From contig JAUSJX010000054.1 in NCBI GenBank assembly GCA_030647435.1, positions 1 to 64,000 on the forward strand: 64,000 nucleotides of DNA, given 5' to 3'. The position numbers were made by a program, and so were the translations under genes. The notes beneath the pieces are model-generated. The model made no database searches. It was given only the letters and a program-made list of their open reading frames with translations, and was not told the DNA's origin. Shown piece after piece: positions 33,652-46,239 of this stretch; position 1 is the first letter of the stretch, and every line of letters begins with the position of its first letter. The stretch comes from Candidatus Rokuibacteriota bacterium. Lineage in GTDB: Bacteria; Methylomirabilota; Methylomirabilia; Rokubacteriales; CSP1-6.

Positions 33652-35550
33652 TCACCGTGGAGTCGGCCGCCCAGCCTGGAGTCGCGCCTGGGTGAGCAGG
33701 AACCGCGTGGCTTCCGAGGCGCCGTCGAGGGCGAGGGCGCGCTCGAGCACGGGCACCGCTTCCGCGCCCCGGCCGCGCTCCATCAGCGCCTGGCCGAGAT
33801 TGCGATGCGTGTCGGGATCCTGGGTCAGGATTCGGGAGGCCTCGGCGAGCAGGGACACCGCCTCGTCGAGCCTGCCCTGCCGCGCGAGTTCGATGCCATG
33901 GTTTCGTAGAGCGTAGCCTAGATTGCTCCGGAGACCAGGAAACGCCGGCTGCGCCGCGGCGGCCTTGCGCAGCCAGGGCACGGCCTCGGCATAGCGCCCT
34001 TGTCTGGCCAGCAGCGCGCCGAGGTTGGCCGCGGGGGCGGCTTGGTTGGGCGCCAGGCTCAGCGCTTGACGGAAGGCCTCTTCCGCCTGGGCCGTCCGTC
34101 CGCGGTTCGTCAGGATGGCGCCCAGCGTGTCGTACGACGTGAAGTGATCGGCGCGCAGCTCGATGGCGTGGCGCACGAGGCCCTCTGCCCTGTCGATCAT
34201 GGCGGGCGAGGGCTCCCGGCGCCGCACGATGGCCGCGGCCAGGTTGTTGGCGCAGACGACGCAGTCCGCGTCCAGCGCCACCGCGCGCTCCCAGAGAGAG
34301 TCGGAGTCGCGCCATATCCGGGTTTGCCCCCAGCTGGCCGCGCCAAGACCAAGGACGACCACGACCGCGACCGCCAGAGCCAGCGTCGCGGGCGCCCGGC
34401 CGAGCCGGTCCGCGCCGCCTGCGCGAAGCAGCGTCCAGAGCGCGCCGCCCGCCACCACGGCAAACCCGAGCCCCGAGAGATAGCTATAGCGGTCATGGGC
34501 GAGTTGGAAGCCGGCGGGCACGATTCCGCTCACGGGTAGGAGCACGAGGGCTGAGTAGGCCCAGGCCGCGAGCGCCCAAGGCGCGCGCCGCCGCAGCAGG
34601 ACGAGGCAGGCGGTCACAGCCAGGAGCGCCAGGAGCGGACCAAGAAAGCGCCCCTGCGAGAGGTCCACCCGCGGGGGCAGCTCGTAGAGCGGTGATAGCG
34701 CCACGGGCCACACCCAGCGCGAGGGATAGAACCAGAAGGCATAGGCGACGACTCCGACGCGCGCCCCCATGCCCGTCTGGCTCCAGGCCGAGGCTGAAGC
34801 GCCGATACGGAGGGCAAGCATGGCCACGACGGCGCCCACCACGGCGATGGCCGCGTACGGCAACTTCTCGAGAAGAAGGGCGCGCCAGTCCAGCCGCAAG
34901 CGGCGAAGCGGGTAGACGTCAAGAAGGAGAAGGACACCAGGCAGCGCCATGACGATGGACTTGGACAGGAAAGCCGCGGCAAAGGCCAGGAGCGAGGCCG
35001 TCCGCCAGCGCCCGCTGATGAATCCGCCGCCGTCTGTCGCGCGAAGGTAGAAGAGGATCGACAACAGGAAGAAGAGCCCGGAGAGCACGTCGCGGCGCTC
35101 GGTGATCCAGGCGACCGACTCCACCCGCAGGGGATGAACCGCGAAGACGAGGGCCGCGAAGGCCGCGCCCGCGCGGTCCGGCATGCTCTCGATGACGCGT
35201 GCGGGCGTCTCGCCCGAGGCGCTGGCCAGGAGCCGTCGGGCAATGAAGTAGAGGCAGACGGCATTGGCCGAGTGGAGCAGGAGATTGCCGAGGTGGTAGC
35301 CCCAGGGATTCATGCCGCCCAGGGCGTAGTTGATTCCCAGGGTGAGCCAGGTCAGGGGAATCCAGTGGCCGAGGAGTGTGGTCGTGAACATGTAGCGAAG
35401 CTGAAGCCAGCCGAGTCCCCGATAGCCCTCGTTCATCAGGAAGTTCGTGACGTCGTCCCAGTAGAGGAATTGGCCCTGGAGCGACGGGAGAAAGGGCAGG
35501 CAAGCCGCGAGGGCAATGCCGGCGGGCCAGAGCAGCCGGGACAGCATCAC
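33652..35550 (-). CDS. TMTC-like GT-C membrane protein with C-terminal TPRs (paralogue C)
   Basis: A 632-residue paralogue: FLYWDD in the first loop (Tyr where the others have Asn), [74 protein letters not shown], then about five TPRs. The start is GTG 35550 or the adjacent ATG 35547; the GTGA overlap with thiE shows translational coupling to a metabolic gene. It heads the A-B-C run at the distal end of the operon. Confidence 0.82.
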
Positions 35551-39273: not shown

Positions 39274-39302
39274 TTTATAAGCGCCAAAGGCCCGAGAGTC
39301 AA
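39274..39302 (-). promoter_or_regulatory. Sigma70-like promoter of the TPR-efp-acc operon
   Basis: TTGACT (39297-39302) and TATAAA (39274-39279) on the minus strand with a 17-base spacer. The predicted start site is about 39267, only a few bases before the ATG at 39264, implying a leaderless or near-leaderless mRNA. The divergent TMTC-like gene begins immediately on the other side. Confidence 0.75.
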
Positions 39303-41107
39303 TGCGTTCCCGGCCCTTGCCGCGCCTATGCCGCCATGACAAACTCGCCCTGGTGGCCGACCACAAGGACACGGACAGCGCGGTTCGCCCAAGCCCGAGC
39401 GGAGCCGCGAGATTCCTGCCTTTGGTAGCCGGCCTCGGAGCTGTCGTGGTCTTCCTGCCGGCGCTCGCGAACGGCTTCATCGACTGGGATGACGGCTCGC
39501 TGCTGCTCCGGAACCCGTGGTATCGCGGCCTCGGCCCTTCGAACCTCGCGTGGATGTTCACGACGGTTCTCATGGGTCACTGGATGCCGGTCAATTGGCT
39601 CTCCTTCGGCCTCGACTACCTCCTCTGGGGGATGAATCCGGCGGGCTATCACCTGACCAACGTCCTGCTCCACGCCGCCGGCGTCGTCGTCTTCTTCTGC
39701 GTGGCGCGGGCACTCCTGCGACCGGCCCTTCCGGCCCGCCCGGCGTCCGACCCGTGGCTCAGCATGGGCGCCCTCGTGGCGGCGCTCGCCTTCGGGATCC
39801 ACCCGCTGCGCGTGGAGTCGGTGGCGTGGGTCACGGAGCGGCGGGATGTGCTCTCCGGGCTTTTCTACCTCCTCGCTGTGTGGGCCTACCTGCGCTATAT
39901 CGCGCGGCGCGCGAAGAGCGCGTACTGGGCCGCGCTCGGCTGTTTCGCCCTCGCGCTCATGTCCAAGTCCATCACGGCGAGCCTGCCCGGCCTCCTGGTG
40001 CTGCTCGACATCTACCCGCTCCGCCGCCTCGGCGGCGCGGCCGGCTGGCTCACGCCCGCCGCGCGGCGAGTCTGGCTCGAGAAGTTGCCCTTCGCGGCGC
40101 TCGCGGTCGCCGGCGCGGCCGTGGCCGTCCGGGCCATCGCCGTCGGCGGCGGGCTGACGCCGCTCGGCGTCCTGGGTCTCCCGGCCCGCGCGGCGCTCTC
40201 GCTCTACGCGCTCGGCTTCTACCTCGCGAAGCTCCTCTGGCCCACGTCCCTCTCGCCGCTCTATGAGCTCGCGCTGCCGGTCCGCCCGCTCGAGGCTCGC
40301 ATCGTGCTGAGCGCGCTCGGCGTCGTCGCGGTCACCGGCGCGGCCCTGCTCCTGCGTCGGCGCTGGCCCGCGTTCCTCGCGGCGTGGGCAGCCTTCGCCC
40401 TGACCCTGCTGCCCGTGCTCGGCATCGCGCACAACGGATACCAGGCCGCCGCCGACCGGTATACCTATCTGGCCTGCCTGGGCTTTGCCGCGCTCGCCGG
40501 AGGTGCCGTCGCGGTCTGGCGCCGCCGGGCGCTGTGGCCGGCCGCGCTGGGGCTCTTGGCCCTGGCCGCGCTGACCTGGATGCAGGTGCCGGTGTGGCGG
40601 AGCGATGAAAGCCTCTGGCGCCGGGCCGTGGAGCTGGAGCCCGGCTCCGGGGTGGCGCGCTCCAACCTGGGCGCCGCTCTCACGGCTGAGCGCCGCTATG
40701 CCGACGCCGTGGCCGAGCTCGAGCGGGCGGTGGCGCTCCGGCCGGGCTATGCCGAGGCGTGGAACAATCTCGGGCTGGCCTGGGCGCAGCAGGGTCGTCC
40801 CGCAGAGGCCGCGGAGGGCTTCCGCCGGGCCGTGGCGGTTCGCCCCCGCTTCGCCGAGGCGTGGAACAACCTCGGCGTGGCCCTGGCCGTGCAGGGGCGG
40901 CGGGACGAGGCGCTCTCGCACTTCCGGGAGGCGCTCCGCCCGAACCCGGACTACGCGGAGGCGCGGAACAATCTCGGTCTCGCCCTCGCGCAGGAAGGCA
41001 AGCTACGGGAGGCGGCCGAGCAGTTCATGCGCGCGGTCGAGCTGAATCCCGAATGGATCGACGCGCGGAGGAATCTGGAGCAGGCGCAGCGACTGTTGGG
41101 TCGCTAA
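39302..41107 (+). CDS. TMTC-like GT-C membrane protein with C-terminal TPRs (paralogue D)
   Basis: A paralogue of about 600 residues on the opposite strand from A-C: FIDWDD in the first loop, [87 protein letters not shown], then four well-formed TPRs (repeated AEAWNNLGLA). The ATG at 39302 overlaps the -35 box of the divergent operon, so the GTG at 39353 may be the real start. It converges with the acyltransferase gene by a 4-base tail overlap. Confidence 0.82.
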   Translation: MRSRPLPRLCRHDKLALVADHKDTDSAVRPSPSGAARFLPLVAGLGAVVVFLPALANGFIDWDDGSLLLRNPWYRGLGPSNLAWMFTTVLMGHWMPVNWLSFGLDYLLWGMNPAGYHLTNVLLHAAGVVVFFCVARALLRPALPARPASDPWLSMGALVAALAFGIHPLRVESVAWVTERRDVLSGLFYLLAVWAYLRYIARRAKSAYWAALGCFALALMSKSITASLPGLLVLLDIYPLRRLGGAAGWLTPAARRVWLEKLPFAALAVAGAAVAVRAIAVGGGLTPLGVLGLPARAALSLYALGFYLAKLLWPTSLSPLYELALPVRPLEARIVLSALGVVAVTGAALLLRRRWPAFLAAWAAFALTLLPVLGIAHNGYQAAADRYTYLACLGFAALAGGAVAVWRRRALWPAALGLLALAALTWMQVPVWRSDESLWRRAVELEPGSGVARSNLGAALTAERRYADAVAELERAVALRPGYAEAWNNLGLAWAQQGRPAEAAEGFRRAVAVRPRFAEAWNNLGVALAVQGRRDEALSHFREALRPNPDYAEARNNLGLALAQEGKLREAAEQFMRAVELNPEWIDARRNLEQAQRLLGR

Positions 41108-42228
41108 AGGGCGGGCGCGACGGCGGCGGCCGGCGCGGCGGCCGTGCGATCGGCTTGCCGCGCCGCGAATCGCGATTTCAGGCGAAGCGCCGGCGCCTCG
41201 ATCCAGCGGTAGGAGGCCCCGGCCATGGCGAACGTGATCACCCACGCCGGCACGATTCGGGACGGGATGTATTCGAGGAGACCCGAGGCCAACAGGGCTC
41301 CCGCGAGGAAGAACACGGGAAGGTGCCACAGGTAGATCGCGTAGGAGCGCTTCCCGATCCACACGAGCGGTGACCAGGCGAGAAGGGGAGCCAGGCGCGA
41401 GCCGGGCTGCAGGACGTCCACGATGAGGATGCCGGCGGCCACCGCCACGATGGTGCTCGCCCCCCGCCGGGCATAGTCGTCGGGCAGACGCGCCATCACG
41501 AGTACGGCCGCGAGGACGGCGGCGGCCGCCAGCGCGGCGACCCGCCATCGCCACCTCGTCGTGGCCGACGGATCGCGCCCGCCCCGGATGTACCCCCACG
41601 ACACGAGGCACGCCGTCGCGCACCCGATGAGGATGGGATCGGCGTGCGCGTCCGTGCCGAGGTAGAAGCGCCGGCCCGTCGCTCCGCTCACCGCCAGGTG
41701 ATAGCGGAGGAGGATCGATCCCAGGGTGGCCAGGAAGAGGCCGGCCACGAGCAGCCATCGCGCGCGCACGCGGCGGAGGAGCAGGGTGAGGACGGGTGGC
41801 CATACGAGGTAGAACTGCTCCTCGATCGACAGCGACCAGGCGTGCCCGAGCATGCCCTGGGGAAGCCCCGCGATGGCCGCCCAGTTCGCCACGTAGAAGA
41901 TCACCGCGAGGACGAAGAGCGACATGCCGACGACGCGGGACGGGCCCGCGGTGGCGATCATGGCCACTCCGGAGACGATCACCACGGGCACGAGGGCGGG
42001 GAGAAGCCGAAGGGCCCGGCGGCAGTAGAAATCACGCAGGGCGATGCGCCCCGCGGCCGCGTGCTCCTCGATCAGGAGCGTGGTGATGAGGAAGCCGCTC
42101 AGGGTGAAGAAGACGTCCACGCCGAGGAAGCCGCCGTGAATCAGCCCGGAGTGATAGAGCATGACGGCGAGGATGGAGATGGCGCGGATGCCGTCGAGGG
42201 CGGGGTGGTAGCCAAGCCGTGTCGTCAT
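41104..42228 (-). CDS. OafA-type acyltransferase 3 family protein
   Basis: A 374-residue membrane acyltransferase of the acyltransferase 3 (OafA/YrhL) family, which O-acetylates or otherwise acylates lipopolysaccharide, exopolysaccharide or antibiotic sugars. YHPALDGIRAISILAVMLYHSG carries the catalytic His; FLGVDVFFTLSGFLITTLLI and FYCRRALRLLP are strong family marks; about ten hydrophobic segments follow. There is no SGNH domain fused. The position among TMTC-like genes suggests modification of the same glycan or protein. Confidence 0.9.
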   Translation of the reverse strand: MTTRLGYHPALDGIRAISILAVMLYHSGLIHGGFLGVDVFFTLSGFLITTLLIEEHAAAGRIALRDFYCRRALRLLPALVPVVIVSGVAMIATAGPSRVVGMSLFVLAVIFYVANWAAIAGLPQGMLGHAWSLSIEEQFYLVWPPVLTLLLRRVRARWLLVAGLFLATLGSILLRYHLAVSGATGRRFYLGTDAHADPILIGCATACLVSWGYIRGGRDPSATTRWRWRVAALAAAAVLAAVLVMARLPDDYARRGASTIVAVAAGILIVDVLQPGSRLAPLLAWSPLVWIGKRSYAIYLWHLPVFFLAGALLASGLLEYIPSRIVPAWVITFAMAGASYRWIEAPALRLKSRFAARQADRTAAAPAAAVAPAL

Positions 42229-42288
42229 GGGCGGCGCTTCGGGACGGTGGTGGACGGCGGGTGGCAGGGCAATGATCTATTTCTAGCA

Positions 42289-42304
42289 CGGCCGTAGACG
42301 GCCG
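42289..42304. other. Small hairpin CGGCCG-TAGA-CGGCCG
   Basis: A 6-bp perfect stem with a 4-base loop between the acyltransferase start and the chimeric fragment. It could end transcripts coming from the TMTC-E side; no T-run follows. The rest of 42229-42323 holds no gene I can support. Confidence 0.4.
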
Positions 42305-42323
42305 CCCGAGAGAATTGGGAGGC

Positions 42324-42512
42324 TCAGCCGAGCTCGGCCAGGGCCTCCAGGATCACGGGCTTGGGGACGTCGAAGACGATGCGGAAGCGTCCGATCTCCG
42401 GGTTGACCTGGTCGTCCCAATTGAGGAACTGGCCGTCGAGCGATGGGATGAACACCGCGAAGCAGAGCGTGGCGACCAGGCTCGGCAACCCCCAGCGGTG
42501 GAGCAACCTCAT
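42324..42512 (-). pseudogene. Chimeric fragment: TMTC-like N-terminus joined to an AroB C-terminus
   Basis: A 62-codon frame. Residues 1 to about 37 are the start of a TMTC-like protein (LVATLCFAVFIPSLDGQFLNWDDQVN). The last 25 residues (PEIGRFRIVFDVPKPVILEALAELG in two halves PEIGRFRIVFDV and LEALAELG) match the end of the AroB encoded at 45157, also at DNA level (TCAGCCGAGCTCGGC and ACGTCGAAGAC are shared). It begins 4 bases after the stop of TMTC paralogue E. It cannot make either protein and looks like a recombination scar. Confidence 0.8.
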
Positions 42513-42516
42513 CAGC

Positions 42517-44487
42517 TCACTGCTCCCGGGCCTGGCCGAGCTCGCGCAGAGCCCGGTCGAGGTTGCTGCGCGCGTCCTGAAAGGCGGGCTTGAGGCTTAC
42601 CGCCTCGCGGAAATGCTCGGCGGCCGCGGCCAGCTGGCCCTGTTGTGCCAGCGCAATGCCGAAGTTGTTGTGCGCCTCGGCGAAGCCCGGCTTGAGCTGG
42701 ACGGCCTCAGTGAAGTGAGCCACGGCGGGGGCGAGCTGGCCGTGGCGCGCGAGAAACGCGCCCAGGTTGTTGTGCGCCTCGGCCGAGTCCGGCCGGAGCC
42801 GCACGGCCTCGACGAAGTGCCGGGACGCTTCGTCGACCTGTCCACGGCGCTCCAGCGCCTGGGCGAGATTCGCGTGCGCTTCAGCGTAGGCCGGCCTGAC
42901 GCGGAGCGCCTCGCGGTAGTGGGCGATGGCTGCATCTGTGTCGCCCAGCCCCGCGAGGAGCACGCCGAGGTTGAGGTGGGTCGCCACGAGGCGAGGGTTC
43001 AGCCTTAAGGCCTCCTGGTAGGAGAGCCTTGCCGCTGGGAGGTCGCCCTGAGCGGCGAGTGCGAGCCCGAGATTGTTATGCGCCTCCGGGTAGCGCGGCC
43101 GGATGCGGAGCGCCTCGCGGTAGTGCTCGACTGCGGCAGCCGTCTCTCCGTTCTGGGCCAGCGCCCATCCGAGGTTCAGGTGGGCGACGGAGGACGGGTG
43201 GGTTTTCAGCGCGTGGGTCCAGAGGGTCTCCGAGCTCTTCCAGGCCTGGACCTGGCTCCAAGTGAGAAGTCCTAATGCGATCGTCACGATGGCCCCCAAG
43301 ACCGCAGCGAGTGGAGCGCGCACCGGCCAGCACCACGCGAGCACACCCCCGAGGGCCAGCGCCCATGCAACGCACGCGAGGTAGGTGTAGCGATCGGCGG
43401 CGATCTGATGGCCGTTGTGGACGATGCCGAGCACCGGCAGGAGGATGACGACGTAAGCCAGCCACGCTCCTAGGAGCGCAGGCCGCCTGCGGCGCAGGCA
43501 GAGGGCGAGCGCCGTGATGGCTAGGACCACCGCGGCGCTCAGAACGAACGGCCAACTCCAAGGATCGAGCCGGGGCGGAAGCTCGTAGAGCGGGGAGAGA
43601 TTCAAGGGCGCCACGGTCTTCCAGAGATAAAACGCCAGTGAGAAGAGAGAGATGACGGCCCGGTCGAGGGCGCCCACCACGGCGAGGGGCGTCATGTTGC
43701 CGGTACCCGAGAGGACGAGGAGCGCAGTGGCGCTCGCGGCCAGGGCGAGCAGGACGAAGGGCACCTTCTCGAGGAGGACACCGCGGGCCGGTCCCGCGAG
43801 CCATGCACGCGAGGGCCAAGGGAGCCGCCGTAGAGGATAGACGTCCAGGATCAAGAGCACGGCAGGGAGGCTCACTACCATGGATTTCGAGAGCAGCGCG
43901 AGAGTGAAGGAGGCGAGCGAAGCCCAGAGCAAGGACCGGTGTGCGGCCGTAGCACCGGAAGCGTAGTGGAGGTATGCCAGGATCGCGAGGAGGTAGAAAA
44001 GGCCCGAGAGGAGGTCGCGGCGCTCGGTGACCCAAGCTACCGATTCCACGCGTAGCGGATGGAGCGCGAAGAAAAGCGCGGTGAAAGTCGCGCCGGCGAC
44101 GAGGCTCCCGGCCTCGTCCCGCTTGGCCGGCCTGGCCAGGGCGAGGATCTGCAGGGCGATCCCATACACGACCGCCGCGTTTGCCGTGTGGAGCAGCAGG
44201 TTCGTCAGATGGTAGCCCGCCGGGTTCATGCCCCATAGGACGTAATCGAGGGCGAACGTCATCCAGGTCAGGGGGATGTAGTGACCGAGGTGATTCGTGG
44301 TGAACATCCACCGGAGGTGGTCCCATTCGAACCCCCGGTAATGAGGGTTGTCCACGAGATTGTGGCGATCATCCCAATCGAGGAAACCGTTGCCAAGGGC
44401 CGGCAGGAACGCGGCGAGCGTGGCTAGCACAACGAGGGCGCAGGCCAGCGGGTGAGCGATTCGCAGTCGAGAGGACCGGGGGGTCAC
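42517..44487 (-). CDS. TMTC-like GT-C membrane protein with C-terminal TPRs (paralogue E)
   Basis: A 656-residue paralogue with GTG start: FLDWDD in the first loop, [89 protein letters not shown], then the longest TPR tail of the set, six regular 34-residue units plus a partial one. It is closest in loop sequences to paralogue D (WGMNPAGYHLTN is shared). It lies between an IS3 remnant and the chimeric fragment. Confidence 0.83.
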   Translation of the reverse strand: MTPRSSRLRIAHPLACALVVLATLAAFLPALGNGFLDWDDRHNLVDNPHYRGFEWDHLRWMFTTNHLGHYIPLTWMTFALDYVLWGMNPAGYHLTNLLLHTANAAVVYGIALQILALARPAKRDEAGSLVAGATFTALFFALHPLRVESVAWVTERRDLLSGLFYLLAILAYLHYASGATAAHRSLLWASLASFTLALLSKSMVVSLPAVLLILDVYPLRRLPWPSRAWLAGPARGVLLEKVPFVLLALAASATALLVLSGTGNMTPLAVVGALDRAVISLFSLAFYLWKTVAPLNLSPLYELPPRLDPWSWPFVLSAAVVLAITALALCLRRRRPALLGAWLAYVVILLPVLGIVHNGHQIAADRYTYLACVAWALALGGVLAWCWPVRAPLAAVLGAIVTIALGLLTWSQVQAWKSSETLWTHALKTHPSSVAHLNLGWALAQNGETAAAVEHYREALRIRPRYPEAHNNLGLALAAQGDLPAARLSYQEALRLNPRLVATHLNLGVLLAGLGDTDAAIAHYREALRVRPAYAEAHANLAQALERRGQVDEASRHFVEAVRLRPDSAEAHNNLGAFLARHGQLAPAVAHFTEAVQLKPGFAEAHNNFGIALAQQGQLAAAAEHFREAVSLKPAFQDARSNLDRALRELGQAREQ

Positions 44488-44529: not shown

Positions 44530-44949
44530 TCAGCCCCAAGCCAGGGACGTTTGGACGCCGAGCGGCGGGTCAAACCGCGCTGAACAGCCCTGACCTTGTT
44601 TTTGCAGTTCGACCAGGGCCTCAGCCCGCTCGGCGCGCTTCCGCCACCGGATGCTCTCTCGCTCCAGTTCGGTGATCCGCTGGTCGCGCGGACCGGGGAC
44701 CCGCGGCACGGGCCCGCGTTTCTTCGGTGCCGCCGCCAGCTCTCCTCGCTCCCGCGCCGCGCGCCACGTCGTCAGGTGGGACGAGTACAACCCCTCCCGC
44801 CGCAACAACGCCCCGACCGCGCCCGACGTCTTGCAGGCGTCCGCCTCTCGGAGGATCTTCCGCTTGTAATCCACCGTGAACCGCCGCCGCGTCGCCTTCG
44901 CCACCACCTCGATCGCCGGCCCACCCAGGGCCTGCTCCAATGCGCTCAT
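44530..44949 (-). pseudogene. IS3-family transposase OrfA remnant
   Basis: About 120 codons of an OrfA: an HTH region (RRRFTVDYKRKILREADAC, then GALLRREGLYSSHLTTWRAAR) and a coiled coil (ITELERESIRWRKRAERAEALVELQKQ). The frame then leaves the family and ends; no OrfB with the DDE domain exists on either side and no terminal inverted repeats were found. The 177 bases between it and aroB contain only the likely upstream part of the same element (ATGAGTGAGACAGTGACC on the minus strand near 45010). Confidence 0.75.
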
Positions 44950-45156
44950 CGCTCTCCAATCCCGACTCGCCCTCGACACGAAACTTCCAGGGGGTCACTG
45001 TCTCACTCATATTGGCAGAGAGGGCCGGGCCAGCTTTCGCGTCACCTATTGGGTGGTGCCCTCCGTGCCAGCGAGGAGCCCCCGAGAGCCACGTTTCATG
45101 CGGGCGTTGAGCGATTATTGCCCGGTTCGTTCACCCTTCAAATCGAAAATGCGGGT

Positions 45157-46239
45157 TCAGCCGAGCTCGGCGAGGGCGTCGAGGATGGTCGCTGTCGGCA
45201 CGTCGAAGACCAGGCGGAACGCGCCGATCTCGGGCGCCAGCACAAAGGGCACGCGGCCGTCCCTGGACTTCTTGTCGCGGCTGAGCGCCTCGACCACGAG
45301 CGAAGGCGCCCCTCCAGCGCCGCGCACAGGCAACCCGACGGCTTCGAGCAGGCGGACCTGCCGCGCGCGCACCCCGGGCTTGGCCAGGCCGAGGCGCTCG
45401 GCGATCCCGGCCTCGGCGGCGATGCCGAGCGACACGGCCTCGCCGTGGGCGAAGCGCCGGTAGCCGGTGACCGCCTCGATCGCGTGCCCGATCGTGTGCC
45501 CGTAGTTGAGGACGTGGCGGAGCTCCGACTCCTGTTCGTCGCGCTCGACCACCGAAGCCTTGAGACGGCACGAGCCCGCGACGATCCGCTCGAGGGCGGC
45601 GGGCTCGCGCTCGAGCAGGGCCGCCACGCCGCGCTCGACGTCCTCGAAGTACGCCGCGTCGAGCACGATGCCGTGCTTGATCACCTCCGCCAGCCCCGAT
45701 CGGTACTCGCGTTCCGGCAGGGTCAAGAGCGCGGCCGTGTCGGAGAGCACGAGGCGCGGCTGGTGGAAGGCGCCGATCAGGTTCTTGGCCCGCGGGTGGT
45801 CGATGGCCGTCTTGCCGCCGATCGAGGCGTCCACCTGCGCCAGCAGCGTGGTGGGCGCCTGCACCACGCCGACACCTCGCATGTAGGTCGCCGCGGCGAA
45901 GCCCGCCAGGTCTCCGACGGCGCCGCCGCCCAGCGCCACGACCGTCGAGCTTCGGTCGAGACCCGCGTCGAGGAAGCGCTCCCACGTCGAGGCGGCGACC
46001 TCCAGCGTCTTGGCGCGCTCCCCCTCGGGCAGGAGCACCGTGGTGACGTCGAAGCCTGCGGCGGCGAGGCTCCGGGTGACGGCGGCGCCGTGGAGGGCCA
46101 GGATCGCCGGGTCGGTGACGAGGGCGATCTTCCGGCCGGCCTTGAGGCGGGCGAGCTCGGCTCCGACCATGGCCAAGGCGCCTGCGCCGACGAGGATGCG
46201 GTACGAGCGGGCGCCCAGATTGACGGGGACGTCGATCAT
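45157..46239 (-). CDS. aroB: 3-dehydroquinate synthase
   Basis: A 360-residue NAD- and metal-dependent enzyme making dehydroquinate from DAHP in the shikimate pathway. Marks: ALGGGAVGDLAGFAAATYMRG, PTTLLAQVDASIGGKTAI, EVIKHGIVLD, and the metal ligands in HVLNYGHTIGHAIE and HGEAVSLGI. It follows aroC by 12 bases in the pilM-pilQ-aroC-aroB operon. A diverged copy of its last 25 codons lies at 42324. No aroK or aroQ is present, though these often follow. Confidence 0.95.
   Translation of the reverse strand: MIDVPVNLGARSYRILVGAGALAMVGAELARLKAGRKIALVTDPAILALHGAAVTRSLAAAGFDVTTVLLPEGERAKTLEVAASTWERFLDAGLDRSSTVVALGGGAVGDLAGFAAATYMRGVGVVQAPTTLLAQVDASIGGKTAIDHPRAKNLIGAFHQPRLVLSDTAALLTLPEREYRSGLAEVIKHGIVLDAAYFEDVERGVAALLEREPAALERIVAGSCRLKASVVERDEQESELRHVLNYGHTIGHAIEAVTGYRRFAHGEAVSLGIAAEAGIAERLGLAKPGVRARQVRLLEAVGLPVRGAGGAPSLVVEALSRDKKSRDGRVPFVLAPEIGAFRLVFDVPTATILDALAELG

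What the first reader, a model, noticed from the sequence alone, without database searches (positions are those of the whole stretch)
42324..42512. Chimeric scar: TMTC-like N-terminus fused to the tail of AroB
The 62-codon frame begins like a TMTC protein (through FLNWDDQVN) and then switches to a diverged copy of the last 25 codons of AroB. DNA similarity to the real aroB end (45157 onwards) is visible. The intact TMTC paralogue E lies exactly between the two aroB tails. This suggests a second aroB end once lay here, or that a segment was transferred with flanking aroB DNA and then deleted internally.
Basis: seen in the sequence. Interest (0 to 1): 0.68.

Follow-up and report, generated by a model that had tools for sequence, protein, structure and literature searches.

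The report
Scar of a gene borrowed from cousins
A small nonsense-looking gene in an uncultured bacterium is the seam where an acyltransferase gene, imported from a sister species with the tail end of its neighbouring gene aroB still attached, was joined to a decaying membrane-protein gene; it is a clear but ordinary trace of gene exchange between relatives.

Summary
The 62-codon frame at 42512-42324 (-) is 37 codons of a TMTC-like N-terminus, then 25 codons of an AroB tail whose DNA is 79.5% identical to the window's own aroB end. The tail is not a decayed copy of that aroB. It matches, 25/25 amino acids and 98.7% of nucleotides, the end of the intact aroB of a sister species (G025), where an acyltransferase-3 gene follows directly, as here. 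The match starts at the junction and runs through that gene at 94.7% over 1,305 bp, against 70-85% for surrounding genes. Third-codon-position identity to G025 is 90% (acyltransferase) and 96% (tail), against 57-69% in ten other genes. The resident aroB matches the closest relatives (96%), which lack the acyltransferase. Best reading: a cassette [aroB tail + upstream region + acyltransferase] came from a G025-like lineage and was joined illegitimately to a TMTC gene that lost its remainder. Homology-facilitated illegitimate recombination, or a second aroB later mostly deleted, would both give this. TMTC E and two truncated insertion sequences lie between the aroB tails. Misassembly is unlikely but cannot be excluded without reads.

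The parts
45157..46239 (-). Resident aroB, intact, G023/G024 type, with its own native tail (45157-45234)
   Evidence: aa 96% to G024 and G023, 80% to G025; tail 97.3% nt to G024; Pfam DHQ_synthase
45025..45156 (-). Left end of an insertion sequence with an IS1380-type transposase (DDE_Tnp_1_4), abutting the aroB stop codon, truncated
   Evidence: About 131 bp, 82-90% identical to the ends of several dispersed elements; a longer copy (L164) encodes a DDE_Tnp_1_4 protein
44595..45024 (-). First 430 bp of an IS3-type insertion sequence (HTH_Tnp_1 orfA), 3' part missing
   Evidence: 96% to G000:C83 and 88% to C41 and to G024 copies; the copy on C83 goes on into an rve-domain transposase
42517..44487 (-). 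TMTC-like paralogue E, intact 656 codons, between the two aroB tails
   Evidence: ORF; TPR repeats in Pfam; best relative in the family 56% aa
42402..42512 (-). TMTC': first 37 codons of a second TMTC-like gene, starting 4 bp after the TMTC E stop codon, truncated at the junction
   Evidence: No other match in 57 family genomes at E <= 1e-8; 41 bp at 90% to G000:C3
42324..42401 (-). Last 25 codons and stop of a G025-type aroB (foreign tail)
   Evidence: 25/25 aa and 98.7% nt to the end of G025's intact aroB; one synonymous difference
42229..42323 (-). Spacer upstream of the acyltransferase, same as downstream of aroB in G025
   Evidence: Continuous alignment with G025:C209; about 86% identical in its first 100 bp
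41104..42228 (-). Acyltransferase-3 gene (PF01757), G025 type
   Evidence: aa 95%, nt 95.2%, third positions 90% to G025; Pfam
41096..41110 (.). Right edge of the foreign block: the acyltransferase stop region shares TAGCGACCC with the 3' end of TMTC D; 57 bp present in G022 are absent here
39302..41107 (+). TMTC-like paralogue D; same place and orientation in G022, only its first ~64 bp left in G024
   Evidence: 61% aa, third positions 56% to G022; G024 deletion scar

Best explanation
The frame is not a functional fusion gene but the seam of a gene transfer within the genus. Shown: the DNA from 42402 down to about 41098 (25-codon aroB tail, spacer, whole acyltransferase-3 gene) is of G025 type, inside a backbone (aroC-aroB upstream, TPR gene-efp downstream) of G023/G024 type. 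Inferred: a fragment of a G025-like donor carrying aroB-acyltransferase recombined at this locus. On the acyltransferase side it was anchored by homology or by the 9-bp TAGCGACCC match. On the aroB side it was joined, practically without homology, to codon 37 of a TMTC-like gene (TMTC'), whose remainder was lost. This is the pattern of homology-facilitated illegitimate recombination. A two-step route, in which a second complete aroB was inserted and most of it deleted later, gives the same sequence. The acyltransferase with its upstream region is the part that stayed intact; the aroB tail is a passenger.
For: The tail is 25/25 aa and 98.7% nt identical to the end of G025's intact aroB, followed there by the same acyltransferase. 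1,305 bp at 94.7% start exactly at the junction, against 70-85% for the other long G000-G025 matches. Third-position identity is 90% and 96%, against 57-69% in ten other genes. The resident aroB is 96% to G024 and 79% to G025 in DNA, and the aroB tree groups G022+G025 (100/100) apart from G000. Sites shared G000=G025 against G025=G022 are 48:21 in the acyltransferase and 58:142 in aroB, Fisher p = 5e-9. An acyltransferase of this type (over 90% aa) occurs only in G000, G022 and G025 of 57 family genomes, in G022 and G025 next to aroB. Homology-facilitated illegitimate recombination is documented by experiment, with insertions coupled to deletions and 0-10 bp of homology at the junction (PMC3240628).
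Against: The acyltransferase tree alone does not exclude G000 as the outgroup (AU p = 0.35; G000+G025 support 41.6/61), so the case rests on low divergence and on the aroB tail rather than on topology. G022's acyltransferase is also unusually close (87% at third positions), so the gene may have moved more than once. The joining mechanism leaves no direct proof. TMTC E and the insertion-sequence remnants are not explained by a single event. No reads were available.
Confidence: 0.82

Rival explanations
1. Misassembly: a piece of a G025-like strain from the same sample was joined into the contig.
For: The genome is a 176-contig draft with 2.07% estimated contamination. The piece is close to another species.
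Against: The piece would have to be misjoined on both sides within 1.3 kb, and the right-hand order acyltransferase-TMTC D is also found in G022. No long repeat spans the 42402 junction: the longest exact string shared by the two aroB tails is 15 bp and with the C3 TMTC 25 bp, and a DNA search of the genome found only short partial matches. There is only one aroB and one acyltransferase of this type in the genome. The sequence differs from G025 by about 5%. The window holds no N.
Confidence: 0.08
2. Local duplication: the second tail is a diverged tandem copy of the window's own aroB end.
For: 79.5% DNA identity to the resident tail and direct orientation.
Against: 98.7% identity to G025's aroB end, and the continuation into spacer and acyltransferase in the same order as in G025.
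Confidence: 0.01
3. Integrative element: a site-specific element targets the 3' end of aroB and carries a substitute tail, leaving two tails as its borders.
For: Two aroB tails in direct orientation flank a 2.7-kb segment unique to this genome. G025's aroB tail is less similar to G022 (69%) than its body (88%), as if it had been replaced at the same point.
Against: No integrase in the segment. The resident tail is native (97.3% to G024) and the tails are only 79.5% alike. A drop of the G025-G022 size occurs in several of 93 comparable pairs.
Confidence: 0.04
4. The 62-codon frame is a translated, functional fusion peptide.
For: Open frame with ATG 4 bp after the TMTC E stop codon.
Against: Junction found in 1 of 60 genomes of the order (which also lists one 3-mismatch chance match); no Pfam domain; the tail shows one synonymous change over 25 codons, too few to test selection.
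Confidence: 0.03

Closest known systems
Homology-facilitated illegitimate recombination (S. pneumoniae, A. baylyi, P. stutzeri, rarely E. coli; PMC3240628)
   Same: Small foreign insert coupled with loss of resident DNA; one side by homology, the other joined with little or no homology
   Different: Inferred here from one draft genome and not observed; natural competence of Rokubacteria was not examined; the homologous side is not uniquely identified
Orphaned 3' ends and displaced immunity genes in T6SS and Rhs loci (PMC5361080)
   Same: A transferred module leaves stranded gene ends; the authors propose a homology-facilitated illegitimate step
   Different: The stranded end here is a housekeeping gene tail that travelled as a passenger; no effector/immunity logic
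Genomic islands that carry a replacement 3' end of their target gene (general knowledge)
   Same: Duplicated 3' gene ends in direct orientation
   Different: No integrase, tails only 79.5% alike, resident tail native

Membership tests
Segment transferred between congeners | Similarity to a non-sister genome far above that of the flanks, silent sites included | tested here: met
   94.7% against 70-85%; third positions 90% and 96% against 57-69%
Segment transferred between congeners | Significant phylogenetic incongruence | tested here: inconclusive
   aroB groups G022+G025 at 100/100; acyltransferase groups G000+G025 at 41.6/61 with AU p = 0.35 for the alternative; site-pattern contrast p = 5e-9
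Segment transferred between congeners | Donor context visible at an edge | tested here: met
   The tail is the end of the donor-type aroB that precedes the same gene in G025
Product of homology-facilitated illegitimate recombination | One junction with 0-10 bp of homology | tested here: met
   Left junction about 1 bp, with the C3 TMTC gene as model for the lost sequence
Product of homology-facilitated illegitimate recombination | Other side joined by homologous recombination | tested here: inconclusive
   Right edge lies in a shared TAGCGACCC stretch and the same gene order exists in G022, but the resident sequence before the event is unknown
Product of homology-facilitated illegitimate recombination | Loss of resident DNA at the illegitimate junction | tested here: inconclusive
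   TMTC' ends after codon 37, but no intact form was found
Integrative element in a gene 3' end | Integrase gene within the segment | tested here: not met
   Only truncated transposase sequence, TMTC E and the acyltransferase
Integrative element in a gene 3' end | The tail of the intact gene is supplied by the element | tested here: not met
   Resident tail 97.3% to G024, body 96.4%

The most novel reading that the evidence does not exclude
The [aroB tail + acyltransferase] block is a recurrently moving cassette in this genus with a left edge fixed at the LAP|EIG codons of aroB. It replaces the aroB tail in some lineages (G025) and lands illegitimately in others (G000), so that a housekeeping gene end serves as a reusable landing site without an integrase.
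Probability: 0.06. Interest if true: 0.5.

Novelty: new member of a known kind. Interest (0 to 1): 0.27.

Why it matters
It shows, to the base, one edge of a recent gene transfer between species of an uncultured genus, with the donor's neighbouring gene end left as a label. It gives a concrete case that a non-core gene next to aroB is exchanged while aroB itself is not, and shows that a stranded 3' gene end can reveal donor context. It does not change what is known about mechanisms of recombination.

Tried and rejected
Local duplication of the window's aroB end: rejected by the 98.7% match to G025. TMTC E as part of the identified donor segment: no relative above 56% aa in 57 genomes, so no donor could be named. 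Source of the TMTC' N-terminus: no match at E <= 1e-8 elsewhere in the family. Idea that G025's own aroB tail was replaced at the same base: its drop from 88% to 69% against G022 looked striking, but similar drops occur in several of 93 comparable pairs, so it is kept only as the novel case. Tree test of the acyltransferase: not decisive. No structure prediction was run; it would not bear on the question.

Full report
WHERE IT IS. The window lies in a 5.79-Mb, 176-contig draft genome (G000, contig C54; 98.5% complete, 2.07% contamination). Its nearest named relatives are Candidatus Rokubacteria metagenome genomes. Five genomes of the genus are held: G000 itself, G022, G023, G024 and G025.

THE OBSERVATION. 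The frame 42512-42324 (-) is as described: 37 TMTC-like codons, then 25 AroB-tail codons. DNA similarity of the tail to the window's aroB end is 79.5% over 83 columns, E = 3e-11, and no shuffled sequence came near the score. TMTC E lies between the two tails.

WHOSE TAIL IT IS. The tail matches the end of the intact aroB of G025 at 25/25 residues and 98.7% of bases, with a single synonymous change. All other aroB tails in the family are at most 76% identical to it. In G025 the aroB stop codon is followed directly by an acyltransferase-3 gene. In the window the same spacer and gene follow the orphan tail. The alignment to G025 is continuous from 42402, exactly the junction, to 41098, six bases beyond the acyltransferase stop codon: 1,305 bp, 94.7%.

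WHY THIS IS A TRANSFER. Other long DNA matches between the window and G025 are 70-85%. Third-codon-position identity to G025 is 57-69% in ten other genes (AroB body, AroC and eight pilus genes), but 90% in the acyltransferase and 96% in the tail. The backbone belongs with G023 and G024: aroB body 94-96% DNA, efp 97-99%. The aroB tree groups G022 with G025 at 100/100. Site patterns reverse between the two genes: 48 sites shared by G000 and G025 against 21 by G025 and G022 in the acyltransferase, 58 against 142 in aroB. The acyltransferase tree by itself is too poor in signal to exclude vertical branching (AU p = 0.35); the argument rests on divergence, silent sites and the attached tail.

DIRECTION. 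In G025 the tail is the end of an ordinary intact gene. In the window it is stranded. The window's clade has a different native tail. So the donor was of the G025 type, or an unsampled lineage close to it.

NEIGHBOURHOOD. G022 has the order aroB - acyltransferase - TMTC D (opposite strand) - TPR gene - efp, which is probably the older state. G024 and G023 go from aroB straight to the TPR gene. G024 keeps about 64 bp of the start of TMTC D, a deletion scar. In the window the following lie between aroB and the foreign block: a 131-bp left end of an insertion sequence whose longer copy encodes a DDE_Tnp_1_4 transposase (IS1380-type), abutting the aroB stop codon; the first 430 bp of an IS3-type element; about 107 bp of unassigned DNA; TMTC E; and the first 37 codons of TMTC'. 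TMTC E has no close relative.

THE JUNCTIONS. On the left, TMTC-like homology to the C3 paralogue ends at 42402 and aroB homology starts there: about 1 bp shared. On the right, the stop region of the acyltransferase and the 3' end of TMTC D share TAGCGACCC, and 57 bp that G022 has between the two genes are missing. The right-hand missing piece could be the crossover itself or a separate small deletion.

MECHANISM. Shown: a foreign block with an aroB tail at its left edge, joined to a truncated TMTC-like gene. Inferred: homology-facilitated illegitimate recombination, in which one side pairs by homology and the other is joined with 0-10 bp of homology and loss of resident DNA (PMC3240628), or insertion of a complete second aroB followed by deletion. 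The two cannot be told apart here. Comparable stranded 3' ends are described for T6SS and Rhs loci, with a similar mechanism proposed (PMC5361080).

ARTEFACT. The junction is in one genome only and reads were not available. Against a misassembly: two misjoins within 1.3 kb would be needed, no long repeat spans the left junction, the right-hand gene order exists in G022, there is one aroB in the genome, and the sequence is 5% away from G025.

VERDICT. A real and well-resolved scar of a transfer between congeners. The kind is known; the case is tidy rather than surprising.

Noticed in passing
window 34610-35295: Part of a TMTC-like gene is 92.6% identical to G022:C73:8832-9517, while neighbouring DNA is 65-80% identical to G022: possibly another recent exchange or gene conversion within the genus.
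   Followed up: no
L119 (G022:C73) 1174-1735: About 550 bp of extra DNA between aroB and the acyltransferase in G022, with an altered AroB C-terminus (…LTEVGLGRGLGFLV). The aroB 3' side is rearranged in at least four of the five genus genomes.
   Followed up: partly
L120 (G023:C184) 1127-1366: About 240 bp with an imperfect terminal inverted repeat (GCAGGCTGCTCAAAAAGG…CCTTTTTCAGCAGCCTGC) between aroB and the TPR gene, like a small non-autonomous transposon.
   Followed up: no
L166 (G000:C3) 899-1651: A TMTC-like gene with a large in-frame internal deletion (…VESVAWVTERR|RLGLLHVDQG…), another decaying copy of this family in the same genome.
   Followed up: no
window 45025-45156: The end of an IS1380-type element sits directly after the aroB stop codon; related ends are dispersed in G000, G023, G024 and G025.
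   Followed up: partly
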